DNA of 64,000 bases from Mytilus galloprovincialis (Eukaryota; Mollusca; Bivalvia; Mytilida; Mytilidae), in the NCBI RefSeq assembly GCF_965363235.1, contig NC_134845.1, positions 82,351,913-82,415,912 of the forward strand. The letters run 5' to 3'. This document shows, in pieces, positions 4,001 to 10,000 of this stretch. Position 1 is the first letter of the stretch, and each line of letters starts with the position of its first letter. Position numbers and translations under genes: made by a program. The notes beneath the pieces are model-generated. The model ran no database searches, had not been told where the DNA came from, and was given only the letters and a program-made list of their open reading frames with translations.

Positions 4001-7000
4001 GAAAACCAAATCTACTGAATACATTTTTTTTTATGGATTCCATGGCTTAAAGTCTGCTCCAAACAAATGACAAATACAGGGATTTAATCAGACCACCACA
4101 AATACCAGATTCTAATGTTGAAATGACCAGTCATACTTAAACCTCACCATACTTCCAGCAGGGATACCAGATTCTACAGTGGCTTGTCCCACAGCAGCAT
4201 TTTCAGCAAACTTGTCCCCTGTTACAACATCTACTGGTAAGGTAATGGTGACGTTGTTAGCCTTGGCTTTATCTACCAGTTTCTGTACAATCTTAGCACC
4301 TTCCTCATCGTACAGCGAGGAACCAATCTAAATTATAGAATTTCATAGTGGCCAATTCAAATTATTTTTCCTGTAATACATGCCTTTTCAACTGTTTACT
4401 TTCAATGCTTCAAAGTGCTTTATTTGATCTTTCCATTTAAGTTTAGTCTTGTGCATATCTGCACAAACAGTCATGCCTCCTCAAACTATCATTCAGTACT
4501 TTTGGACTCTGATTTTTTTTTATTCAAGAGTCACTGATGAGTTTTTACAGATACATTTTTTTTTAAGCCTGGTACCTACTATAAATTATATATTTTATAT
4601 CTGAACTGAAAAAATGTGTAGCTATTTGTACAGTATCATACATGTACCCCCTTATTATTTAGAACTTTAAGAAAGGTAACTCTTCCACCAATGATCATTT
4701 CATTCACTTTATCGTGTGAGTGTGTGTATGTATATGTCTTGGTGTGTATGACAAGGTGTACTTTATCATACCTCCATATTATTTAGTACTTTAAGAAAGG
4801 TAAATGCCATGCCTCCTCCGATGATCATTTCATTCACTTTATCCAACATATTTTCTATTAACTGGATCTTATCTGCTACCTTGGCTCTGAAACAAAAAAA
4901 ATATGTATCTTAATAAATCTAATAGATGAAGATTTATATTCCTTGAACATTTTCCCTTCAAAAAGGTAATTGTAAGTCCTCTGCTAGAATCTGGCTCCAT
5001 GTATGAATTAATAACGCTGATCAACTTTTAATAAACATAAGTGGCTAAGTATTCAGTAAAGTGCTGTTTCAATGGGTGTCCCAGAAAATGCATTTTTTTC
5101 ATATTTTAAATTATTTTGAGTTTTAATGCAGGTAGCTTATTCAATTCACTGTATGATGAAGAGATAATATAAACAGTCTCATATGAAAAGTTTATTGTTG
5201 AATAAAGTATTTTATAAATGAAGTGTTGAATTCCCTATTTTTTGCATGCTTATTTTGTGACATGGTCGAATGACCCAAAATCAAAATTGTTTTATTAACC
5301 TTTTTGTATGAATGGCAACTAGGTAAAAAGGATTTTCAGGTAATACAATAGGGTTGGCAAGGTTAAGGACACTAAAACAAGAAAAATCATCGAAAAATAA
5401 GGATTAAAAACAATTTTAAATGGTAACGTTGTCGGACTAACATTTTCTGTCTTCTTCCTAAGTGAAAATGAAATATAAGTTATGTAACAATAGAGGGCAA
5501 TTAAATGCACAAAATATCTTGAGGCTTGAGCTTATTAACTAAAATGTGATAATTCATCATGAAGTTACAGCAGAAAGTTTTATTTTTTTCAGGAATTGTC
5601 ATTAAAGTTTACTCTTGAAAAATCAGTCCAACCGTTACGGACGAAAATTTCAATTTTCATTTGCAAGTTGCCAACTCAGTTTAAGTTTTTTTTAATGTTT
5701 ATGACAACAAATTTTACGACAATCGCGATGCACATACGGTATTGCTGTCAACTGTTCCTTTTTACTTGAGGTCAACGACATCGAAGGGGTGAACGCTCTT
5801 TCTGTCCAACCAAGAGATGGAAGTTACATCCGAATAAATGTTACGTCCAACGTCCAAGATATTCTCTAAAATGGCTACCACAAGTCACAGAATCAATTTC
5901 GCTTCCACTTTGACAATTACTTAACCTTAAATACTACCGTATATATGAAAAATAAAGAAGTTTTAAACTGTTGACAGTCTAAATTTGACATAATTTTGAA
6001 AATTAGGACGTAACAAGAGTCCATTAATTTTCTGTTGGACGAACCTTAGGACAAAATCTTCTAATGTCGGACGTAACAGCTTTTTAAAAGTAAAAAGAAA
6101 CTTGTTAACAACTAACAAGTCCACATAAATTTAAAAATAGTTCTCAGACCCTTCATAGTCTCTTCTTAAGAGGTGCCCATTTTTAAATTGCCATTAGAAT
6201 CAGTAAAATAATGAATTCTGTCCTATCTTTGTCCGACAGGGAATATAATCTGTCCTATGTTTGTCCTACAACAGATGAATTCTGTACGCTGTTCATCCAA
6301 CAGTTTTTTATGGTTTTGTTTTATACATTTATTTAATAATGAACCATTTTACCTCTTGCTGAGGAACACCAGCTGTAGATATTAGTATAAACACCATAGT
6401 TTTGATTTTGTTTTTGACTTTAAATGATGCAAATGGAACAAATTCTCATCCAAAAATGTCCCCGTTTGTCCGACATATTTTAAGATTTTTCCAACTTATA
6501 AGTTAGTTTTTGAAAAATTTAACAAAATGATATACTTTAATTGAAGATCTTATGAACTGTCAGAGAAAAATTAATATATTTATGAACAAAGCCTTCATAT
6601 AAAAGGAAAATATTCAATTTTCAATGTCCTGTTACATCCAACATAACCTCTGTCAAACATGCTATTTAGGTCTAATTTTATGTTTTCTGACTAAATAACT
6701 ATCTTTTTACATGTAAAACCCTAAACTAGAATCATTCTCCTTTCAGAAAATCATGTTATTATGATTGAAACAGCTACTTTTAAAATCATACATGTTGTCA
6801 CACACTAACAACACTATAATGAATACTTAGCCATGTAAGAGTATATTTTTTGTTTTTATCATTCTTGCATGCACAGTTATTCAATCCTGTTCAAAGCTGA
6901 ACAATCCTATGAATCCTTCCATGCATACCCCTACTATGTCAAATTCATTAAGCCATGATGCTAGACTAAGGATTACTAGAAATGTTCTCTCTAGATTTAC

Positions 7001-10000
7001 CTTACCATAATAGTTAGGAATGGTTTCTCTGGTCTTACCCTCCCACAATAGCTAGGAATTGTATCTCTTGACTTATCCACCAAGGAGATAGTAATAGTTT
7101 CTGCTAACCTACTCTCCAAGAATAGCTAGGAATGGTCTCTCCAGACTTACCGTCCAAGAATAGCTAGGAATGATCTCTCTAGACTTACCCTCTAAGAATA
7201 ATAGTTAGGAATGGTCTCTCTGGACTTACCCTCCAATAATAGCTAGGAATGGTCTCTCTAGACTTACCCTCCAAGAATAGCTAGGAATGGTCTCTCTGGA
7301 CTGACTAATGCTTTGGCGAAGTAAGTTAACTCTTTCTTCAACAAGAACCCTGATGCTCTCTGTGATAACTGACATCCAACCATAGAACTGTAATGGAATA
7401 AATGAATATAAATTTTACAATTACTATTCACCTGCTGAGTTCCTTTTTTGTCTCATTTGACACAGTCAAAAAGCAAGACATCCGTACTGTGGATTCATTT
7501 ATTTTCGTTGGTACCAATTTTAAGTGGGGTTTCGTGTTGTTTATTCTTTAGTTTTCTATGTTGTGTCATGTGTGCTGTTGCTTGTGTGTCTTTTTCATTT
7601 TTAGCCATGGCGTTGTCAGTTTGTTTTAGATTTATGAGTTTGACTGTACCTTTGGTATTTTTTGTCCCTCTTTTAAGGATATTTGATTTCATGGTTTTAT
7701 CGATGTCTGCATACAAGCCAAAAAAAAAGTTTTTCTTTGGTTTTTTTTTTCATGGGTCACCTGTACCCATGAAATACACGAAAACTAGTACCACACAAAA
7801 ATAATCAAACCAGATTATGCTGTTTCCAGTGTTGGCCGCAGCAGCAACTTTGTCATCAGTGTATCAGCTTATGATTAGTAAAATTGTGACTGGAAATGTT
7901 GAATGTGTCAAAGAGCAGAAAACAGTCGAAGGTATTAAGTTGTATTAGCATTGGCACATCTCATTTCCATGGAAATTATTCGGCCCCATCCCCTCAGTCA
8001 TGGTCTATTGACCTCAGACATGGGGTCAATTACATTTGAAAGTAATTAATTACATTCAATTACAATTACAAAATCTTCAATTAAATTACACATTACATTT
8101 GACTTTTTTTACCAATGTAATTAATTACATTCCAATTACTTGGCAAATGTAATTAATTACTTCAATTACATTTGAAAGGAAATTTAAGATAAAACATTGA
8201 AAACATGCATTTATTCTATGATATGTACATAAGTATTATACATTGCTCTATAGTTATAACAATTAGACAGTGTTCAACTAGTATATACATTTTTGTATTG
8301 TGTCATATAACTTATTTAAGCATTTTCCCATTACATTTGACCATCATCAGCTTTTCAAATGTTCCATCAGCCAGTCTGCACCTTTCCGGCCTAAATGTTT
8401 TTCCAGCAGTGCTAAATAAGCGTTCAACTGGTGCAGATGTGGCTGGAATAGCTAAATATTGCACTGCTAACTTAGCTAGACGTGGTAAACGTTGACAGTT
8501 ACTATGCCAATACAAAAGAGGGTCTTTTGACATATCAATACAATTATCTGACAAGTAATCATCCATTTCTGAACTTACAGAAATCCCTGAAGGGTTTCTT
8601 TTTCTTTCCACTGATGGGGCTGGCATGAAACTGAAAAGATCATCATTTTTTGCTCGCTTACATGGGGGAGAATTTTGATCACAAGGGGGCTCAGATGATG
8701 TAGGGACTTGACTAAGTTTGTCCTTAACAACAGCTAAACACTGCTCAATCTGTTCAGTTTCACACCATCTGGTCTTAAATCTTGGGTCTAAAAAGCTAGC
8801 AAGAATATATGCTTCATCCTCTACAAACTGAAACAATCTTTCTTCAACAGAAGATTTCAATGATTTTATCATTTTACAATTATAGTCAACTGATATAAGT
8901 TTTAACTGGTGTTTTAATCCAAGTGTTACAGGAATTGGCAAGCTAGCAGTTACAGTTTTTTCACCTTGGACAAGGACTGTAGCTTTGTCAAAAGGTTCAA
9001 GTATAGTAACTTCCACTAATGAGGGTGCCACAATGCATACATTTTCCTTTGAAAGTATTTCCATTTTGGAAGTCATCAGGAACAGTAAAATGTTCCAGTA
9101 CACTCTTGGAGCTCATTTTTAAATCTGATAAAATGTTTTCTTTCAACATTCATATATATAGTGAACAAATTTTGCAAGTGAGATTTTGTCATATGCATTA
9201 TCCCTTCAAGAATTTAAACATGTACCTATAGGCCCTAGGGGTATATTTATCTCTCTCTAATTAGCCTTATATCTGTTTAACATAACTGTTATAAAAACAG
9301 TCATTATATAGTTTGTAATAAAACAAATAGCCAGAGGTTATATTTATTGGTTATTTAAGTCCTTGAATAAAGTTAATTATGTTAAATCAATGTCTTAAAA
9401 TATCTATCTAAATCTACTAATTAAGGTCAAGACAGTGACTTCCTAGTGGTTTCTTTTAAAATTATGGCATGTGTCTACATTTTTTTTTATCATTCAATAC
9501 AAAATGAAGAATCTACCATGGTTGTGTTAATACAGAAAGTATACTGTGAAGGCTTTTCTTTGTCAGCTTACAACATTTGTTAAGATTATTGCTTTTAATA
9601 ATTTTTTGAGAAAACACAAGATTTAATCTTTTGATCCAAAATTTCAAATGTAATTGACTTGTAATTGAAAAGTAATTGTCAATTACAGGCAATTTTGGCT
9701 ATGTAATTAATTACATTCAATTACATGTAATTGAAAAAATGCTCAATTACACATTACATTCAATTACATGATAAATTGTAATTAATTACAGTCAATTACA
9801 ATTACATATTTCAATTACCCCATGTCTGATTGACCTTGATACTTTTGCTTGTTCAAGTATTTTATCTTAATTTTAACATTTGCATTTTTACTATTAAAAT
9901 AACTCTGTTAGAGTGTAGAAATGAAAATAATGCAATTTTCCAAGTTCAAAGAGGGAGAACTCTAAAAGGTTAAGTGACCCAAATTTGAACTCTGTCTGCA

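What the first reader, a model, noticed from the sequence alone, without database searches (positions are those of the whole stretch)
6986..7390. PGK exon 6 end and its 5' splice site are tandemly repeated into the intron
Seen: about 38-bp units, six in the intron plus the exon copy, each carrying the codons for [11 protein letters not shown] and a GGTAAGT-type donor. Known: 5' splice site choice depends on position and strength. Inference: an exon-intron junction became the unit of a minisatellite, giving a ladder of decoy donors. Any donor but the first adds an immediate stop codon. If U1 binds the array, it could tune PGK output by unproductive splicing; if not, it shows how the authentic donor is chosen among near-identical neighbours.
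Basis: partly seen in the sequence, partly recalled or inferred. Interest (0 to 1): 0.75.

Follow-up and report, generated by a model that had tools for sequence, protein, structure and literature searches.

The report
Mussel splice sites inside tandem arrays
In what is probably a mussel genome, the end of a glycolysis-gene exon, splice signal included, has been copied seven times into the next intron, and a small survey suggests that such duplicated splice sites are common there and mostly tolerated, giving natural test cases for how cells pick the right splice site.

Summary
PGK lies on the minus strand. A 38-bp unit (31 exon + 7 intron nt) at the end of a 120-nt exon recurs as seven degenerate copies in the 2381-nt intron; GT survives in 6 of 7, GTAAGT in 3, and a stop follows the true donor at once. 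Locus and gene are single-copy in a 1.385-Gb, probably Mytilus, genome. The next PGK exon's end is also duplicated. Among 120 exon pieces in 60 gene clusters, 17 of 240 match edges lie in such arrays (10 donor, 7 acceptor; 16 clusters), against 37 of 600 distant flank points. In 12 donor arrays 47 of 48 detected copies keep GT, 32 score within one bit of the true donor or better, and donor positions have diverged as much as neighbouring exon-derived positions (7.2% v 7.3%). Best reading: background tandem duplication catches exon edges; decoys are neither purged nor preserved; the exon-attached site is presumably used. A rheostat role is not supported by sequence, nor excluded; RNA data would decide. 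Boundary-crossing tandem repeats are known (human, potato); the apparent prevalence and strength of decoys here look new.

The parts
7268..7387 (-).
   Evidence: translates to [41 protein letters not shown]00162 match
7261..7298 (-). founder unit: 31 exon nt + GTAAGTC (authentic donor, +1 G at 7267)
   Evidence: U1 5'-end duplex -10.0 kcal/mol
7223..7260 (-). intron copy 1, decoy donor AGG|GTAAGT, U1 duplex -10.0
7182..7222 (-). intron copy 2 (41 nt, a 3-nt insertion), decoy AGG|GTAAGT, U1 duplex -10.0
7144..7181 (-). intron copy 3, decoy ACG|GTAAGT, U1 duplex -9.3
7106..7143 (-). intron copy 4, weakened decoy AGA|GTAGGT, U1 duplex -6.1
7070..7105 (-). intron copy 5, dead decoy TGG|ATAAGT (GT lost), most diverged copy
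7032..7069 (-). intron copy 6, decoy AGG|GTAAGA, U1 duplex -8.9
6994..7031 (-). intron copy 7, decoy AAG|GTAAAT (U1 duplex -6.8, but matrix score 5.8 against 5.5 for the true donor), plus an overlapping GTAAGG at 7005
4887..7267 (-). intron holding the array (2381 nt)
   Evidence: next exon AKVADKIQL... begins at 4886
4772..4886 (-). next PGK exon (115 nt), whose 3' end is also duplicated
   Evidence: PF00162 match
4645..4713 (-). copy of the 3' end of that exon with its donor region, in the following intron; 83% identical to 4769-4843; donor decayed to GGG|GTACAT
   Evidence: E=4e-16

Best explanation
A by-product of a genome-wide habit of local tandem duplication. Short tandem duplications (periods 20-300 bp) cover about 6% of the flank points and window sequence examined. 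When a duplication straddles an exon edge, the extra copies fall in the intron and carry working-looking splice sites. In PGK a slip between two short matches (AGTC in the exon and AGTC in the donor GTAAGTC; inferred) copied the last 31 exon nt plus the donor, and further copies accumulated. The exon-attached donor is the one presumably used (inferred; not shown by RNA). The decoys are tolerated and decay at the pace of the surrounding unit. Shown: anatomy, single copy, recurrence, rates, donor retention, stops. Inferred: origin by slippage, use of the first donor, near-neutrality.
For: 17 of 240 match edges lie in a local tandem array, against 37 of 600 flank points 600-1400 nt away (Fisher p=0.64); in the 60 loci that supply those distant points the edges are 8 of 120 (recounted). 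5.7% of the window is covered. In 12 donor arrays donor positions differ at 31 of 432 sites, neighbouring exon-derived positions at 86 of 1176. In PGK the copies nearest the exon differ at 1-2 of 27 exon-derived sites (copies 1-4), the far ones at 8, 4 and 5 of 27, as expected for an ageing array. Acceptor edges show the same thing: 10 of 12 detected upstream copies keep AG in register. The paralogous dynein exon in L048 has one copy where L047 has four, so arrays come and go. The PGK exons join in frame if the first donor is used.
Against: No RNA evidence for which donor is used. By the recalled rule that the intron-proximal of two equal 5' splice sites tends to win, copies 1 and 2, equal to the true donor in U1 pairing (-10.0 kcal/mol), should divert splicing into a stop, so tolerance needs explaining. 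Copies were accepted only at 70% similarity or more, donor included, so decayed copies may be missed. The comparison cannot exclude a moderate enrichment or depletion at edges; the 600 points are five distances on two sides of 60 loci, not independent; and conserved exon copies make old duplications easier to see at edges. The lower cover of exon middles (4 of 120) is not significant against edges (p=0.23).
Confidence: 0.72

Rival explanations
1. Rheostat: U1 occupies the decoys and a fraction of transcripts is spliced to them, giving stop-containing mRNA that is degraded; repeat number tunes PGK output.
For: The first two decoys pair with U1 as well as the true donor; stop codon directly after the true donor; 9 of 12 donor arrays have a stop before the first decoy and L100 shifts frame.
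Against: Donor positions are not better preserved than neighbouring positions; PGK copies 4 and 5 have lost strength; stops are to be expected by chance in read-through intron sequence; no enrichment of arrays at exon edges was seen.
Confidence: 0.15
2. In some arrays a downstream copy is the donor really used, so that repeat units are translated as extra peptide.
For: L125 (63-nt unit) and L127 (75-nt unit) stay open in frame to their first decoy.
Against: Not possible without truncation in both PGK arrays and 7 other donor arrays (stop first); in L125 it would repeat the KMSKS catalytic segment (motif recalled).
Confidence: 0.05
3. The arrays created these introns (intron gain by tandem duplication of an exonic AGGT segment).
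For: A known route of intron gain (PMC4974935, passages); PGK units carry AGGGT.
Against: The PGK introns split the protein after ILGG and NNME with exon lengths 120 and 115 nt, which is as I recall human PGK1, so they are probably old; the array fills about 270 nt at the 5' end of a 2381-nt intron and the 3' splice site lies outside it.
Confidence: 0.03
4. Assembly artefact.
For: Tandem arrays are error-prone in assembly; reads were not available.
Against: PGK units differ from one another at many sites, so they are not copies of one read segment; arrays with other units occur in 16 of the 60 sampled gene clusters.
Confidence: 0.03

Closest known systems
Internal tandem repeats at exon-intron boundaries in human genes of segmental duplications (PMC2812944, passages seen)
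   Same: Minisatellites (on average 30-bp units, 4 copies) that change gene structure, part of them at exon-intron boundaries and linked there to altered splicing; 27 intron modifications after manual inspection
   Different: Human cases were sought as differences between recent paralogues; here ordinary exons of conserved genes, a single-copy one among them, both edges, and 16 of 60 sampled gene clusters
Tandem duplication crossing an intron-exon boundary in a potato RdRp gene, and 24-bp AGGT repeats in fission yeast genes (PMC4974935, passages seen)
   Same: Local tandem duplication that copies or supplies splice sites with their flanking exon
   Different: There it made a new intron; here introns only gain decoys
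Competing duplicated 5' splice sites in laboratory minigenes and surplus U1 binding (Hodson et al. 2012 and earlier work: recalled; only the title seen, in reference lists)
   Same: Near-identical 5' splice sites in cis within tens of bases
   Different: Natural, up to 11 extra copies seen (L118), in conserved genes
Intronic minisatellite CeRep25B near alternative exons of C. elegans (PMC4039745, passages seen)
   Same: Intronic minisatellite associated with splicing decisions
   Different: That unit is a repeat found in clusters on two chromosomes with regulatory motifs, not a copied exon edge

Membership tests
Minisatellite / variable-number tandem repeat | Head-to-tail units of roughly 10-100 bp | tested here: met
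   TRF period 38, 8.6 copies
Minisatellite / variable-number tandem repeat | Copy number varies between individuals | not testable with these tools
   One assembly only; the tool says that G000 has no relatives here
Exon-intron boundary tandem repeat | Unit spans the coding end of an exon and its splice site | tested here: met
   31 exon nt + 7 intron nt in the founder unit
Exon-intron boundary tandem repeat | Altered or alternative splicing in transcripts | not testable with these tools
   No RNA data on hand
Unproductive-splicing (NMD-coupled) switch | Alternative splicing would introduce a premature stop | tested here: met
   GGA GGG TAA directly after the true donor: potential only
Unproductive-splicing (NMD-coupled) switch | Alternative sites conserved more than neighbouring sequence | tested here: not met
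   31/432 v 86/1176 differences over 48 decoys within this genome; across species not tested
Intron gain by tandem duplication | Array supplies both splice sites of the new intron | tested here: not met
   PGK: the acceptor lies about 2.1 kb beyond the array

The most novel reading that the evidence does not exclude
In this mussel several per cent of all splice sites sit in tandem arrays with equally strong copies, and the spliceosome nevertheless uses the exon-attached copy by a positional rule, so that duplicated splice sites are nearly neutral. That would contradict the simple expectation that the intron-proximal of equal 5' splice sites wins, and would offer thousands of natural competition constructs whose length may vary between individuals.
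Probability: 0.35. Interest if true: 0.82.

Novelty: new variant of a known kind. Interest (0 to 1): 0.62.

Why it matters
How the spliceosome picks one of several near-identical splice sites is studied mostly with built constructs (recalled). Here one genome seems to hold many natural series with 1 to 11 extra copies seen, varied spacing (38-133 nt) and graded decay, at both donors and acceptors, in conserved genes whose correct product is known. If RNA shows faithful use of the exon-attached copy, position or exon context beats site strength; if not, repeat length becomes a source of heritable variation in gene output. Gene annotation in such genomes would also be affected.

Tried and rejected
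Enrichment of arrays at exon edges: looked for and not found (17/240 v 37/600, p=0.64). Nearer flank points (200-300 nt; 48 of 720) were dropped as a control because arrays that start at an edge reach them. Exon middles: 2 of 120 by the stricter measure, 4 of 120 by plain cover, not significant against edges (p=0.23). Automatic BLAST chaining undercounted copies at half-periods and found none for the second PGK array, so copies were recounted by sliding a 24-36 nt probe; both ways gave no faster loss at donors (15/267 at donors, 100/1402 exon part, 81/856 intron part). Acceptors: six of the seven 5' cases were probed; L050 was left out and L052 returned no copy above threshold, though by eye one L052 copy keeps an AG; in L070, whose two copies match 36/36, which copy is the authentic one is unclear. 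A retrocopy of PGK that would reveal the donor used was not found (only 7 PGK matches, all in this gene).

Limits of the sample. The edges of the 120 pieces are Pfam match ends, not annotated exons; a donor scoring above 2 bits near the match end was found for 93 of 127 pieces (120 + 7 PGK), and the scoring matrix was trained on those from a recalled mammalian start matrix. The donor of L127 was placed by hand 46 nt past the match end, and L024's donor is the least certain. The sample is the top 30 of 93 myosin and top 30 of 98 dynein matches, rows 2-41 of 125 kinesin matches (row 1, a 978-nt single piece, left out) and rows 1-20 of 25 tRNA-synthetase matches. For L103 I joined three adjacent or overlapping kinesin rows into one place; its array (within the match) is not among the 17. 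PF08393 and PF01602 places were not read. The distant control points come only from the 60 myosin and dynein loci. Literature: ten full-text searches were answered, each showing at most its top 8-20 papers (one search found none); no listed title or abstract start reported splice-site arrays in a mollusc; subscription papers are mostly not held.

Full report
What is there. PGK runs on the minus strand. The exon at 7387-7268 (120 nt) ends ...[10 protein letters not shown] and its donor is AGG|GTAAGTC, +1 G at 7267; the next exon starts at 4886 and the two join in frame. From 7298 downwards a unit of 38 nt, the last 31 exon nt plus 7 intron nt, is repeated: the founder and seven intron copies, the last ending at 6994. 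The copies nearest the exon differ least (1, 2, 1, 1 of 27 exon-derived sites), the far ones most (8, 4, 5). Donors: GTAAGT three times, then GTAGGT, ATAAGT, GTAAGA, GTAAAT. Pairing with a recalled U1 5' end is -10.0 kcal/mol for the true donor and for the first two copies, -9.3 for the third, and -5.3 to -8.9 after that; by the donor matrix the seventh copy scores 5.8, slightly above the true donor's 5.5. A stop follows the true donor at once (GGA GGG TAA).

Context. The stretch gave one match in the genome, and all seven PGK-domain matches are in this gene. The assembly has 1.385 Gb in 331 contigs; the contig numbers in the match tables that I saw run from C1 to C14. The myticin family, which I recall as a mussel (Mytilus) family, gives 17 matches and none in 14 control genomes, which are all prokaryotes. 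So the species is probably a Mytilus; this is inference.

Not a single oddity. The following PGK exon (4886-4772) has its own 3' end and donor region copied to 4645-4713 at 83% identity; its decoy has decayed to GTACAT. I then read 120 exon pieces from motor-protein and tRNA-synthetase families. Self-comparison within +-500 nt found a tandem copy straddling 10 of 120 3' edges and 7 of 120 5' edges, in 16 loci, falling into 16 of 60 gene clusters. Edges here are ends of Pfam matches. Examples: L078, five 90-nt copies seen, every donor CAG|GTAAGA; L118, 45-nt unit, 11 copies seen, every donor GAG|GTGTGT; L075, 41-nt unit, seven copies. Acceptors: L047, 62-nt unit with intact AG in all three extra copies; L089, 133-nt unit. 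Shuffled loci gave no hit in 120.

Background. Points 600-1400 nt from the myosin and dynein pieces are covered by such arrays in 37 of 600 cases, points at exon middles in 4 of 120, and 5.7% of the window is covered. Edges at 17 of 240 (8 of 120 in the myosin and dynein loci, 9 of 120 in the rest; recounted) are thus at the background level (Fisher p=0.64). Distant points may include unknown exons and are not independent, conserved exon copies make old events easier to see, and the sample is small: a moderate enrichment or depletion is not excluded.

Are decoys purged or kept? In 12 donor arrays (10 from the survey, two from PGK) I found 48 copies at 70% similarity or more. GT is kept in 47; 32 score within one bit of the true donor or better; differences are 31 of 432 at the nine donor positions and 86 of 1176 at neighbouring exon-derived positions. 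That is what neutral decay predicts. Copies within an array share ancestry, so these are not 48 independent observations. Read-through from the true donor meets a stop before the first decoy in 9 of 12; L100 shifts frame; L125 and L127 stay open in frame. For acceptors 10 of 12 detected copies, from five arrays, keep AG in register; one of the two others (L095, -187) has the AG one base off.

Origin. The exon has GTCAGTC and the donor GTAAGTC; the unit begins and ends at the shared AGTC, so a slip between these could have made the first copy. In L075 and L125 the donor's own letters likewise resemble the exon sequence at the start of the unit (read by eye). This is inference. The paralogous dynein exon in L048 matches four places of L047 with a single place of its own, so that array arose or expanded after those genes split, or was lost in L048.

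Working. The best-supported account is by-product and tolerance: tandem duplication is frequent in the sequence examined, exon edges are hit at about the background rate, and extra copies lying in the intron are harmless enough to persist. It follows that the exon-attached donor is normally chosen, though no RNA was available. That is not trivial: from memory, minigene work found that of two equal nearby 5' splice sites the intron-proximal one tends to be used, and the passages seen in PMC5389562 speak of less efficient splicing with multiple bona fide 3' splice sites.

Known and new. Tandem repeats across exon-intron boundaries are in print for human paralogues (PMC2812944, passages), and a boundary-crossing tandem duplication that made an intron for potato (PMC4974935, passages). 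The M. coruscus genome paper, in the passages seen, used Tandem Repeats Finder only for units of one to six bases (PMC8063583), which would overlook these arrays. No report of frequent splice-site arrays in a mollusc was among the papers listed by my searches, which do not cover most subscription papers. I therefore rate it a new variant of a known kind: the single PGK array is a curiosity, the apparent prevalence is the surprise.

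Noticed in passing
window 4645-4713 and 4769-4843: The next PGK exon also has its 3' end and donor region duplicated into its intron (83% identity).
   Followed up: yes
L125 (G000:C2:83562448-83563543) and L127 (G000:C3:42710579-42711683): tRNA-synthetase exon ends in arrays whose 63-nt and 75-nt units stay open in frame to the first decoy, so decoy use could add repeated peptide.
   Followed up: partly
G000:C3:107861530-107862422: Five kinesin-motor matches, most of them about 133 nt apart, up to and including one exon piece, visible in the match table itself: an acceptor-edge array (L089).
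   Followed up: partly
L050 and L052 (dynein genes about 95 kb apart on C3): The same dynein exon has an acceptor-edge array in both genes; shared ancestry or repeated origin not resolved.
   Followed up: partly
window about 7514-7675: Stretch upstream of the PGK exon is a dispersed repeat, about 78% identical to copies near a kinesin gene (L071, L084).
   Followed up: no
window 15324-15363; 29799-30575; 54813-55116: A run of 40 G, a 161-bp repeat of 4.8 copies, and a 20-bp A+T-rich array.
   Followed up: no
G000:C2:80562206-80588630 and C2:83562948-83586697: Two tRNA-synthetase-like genes 3 Mb apart with matching exon pieces; L118 and L125 arrays lie in one each.
   Followed up: no
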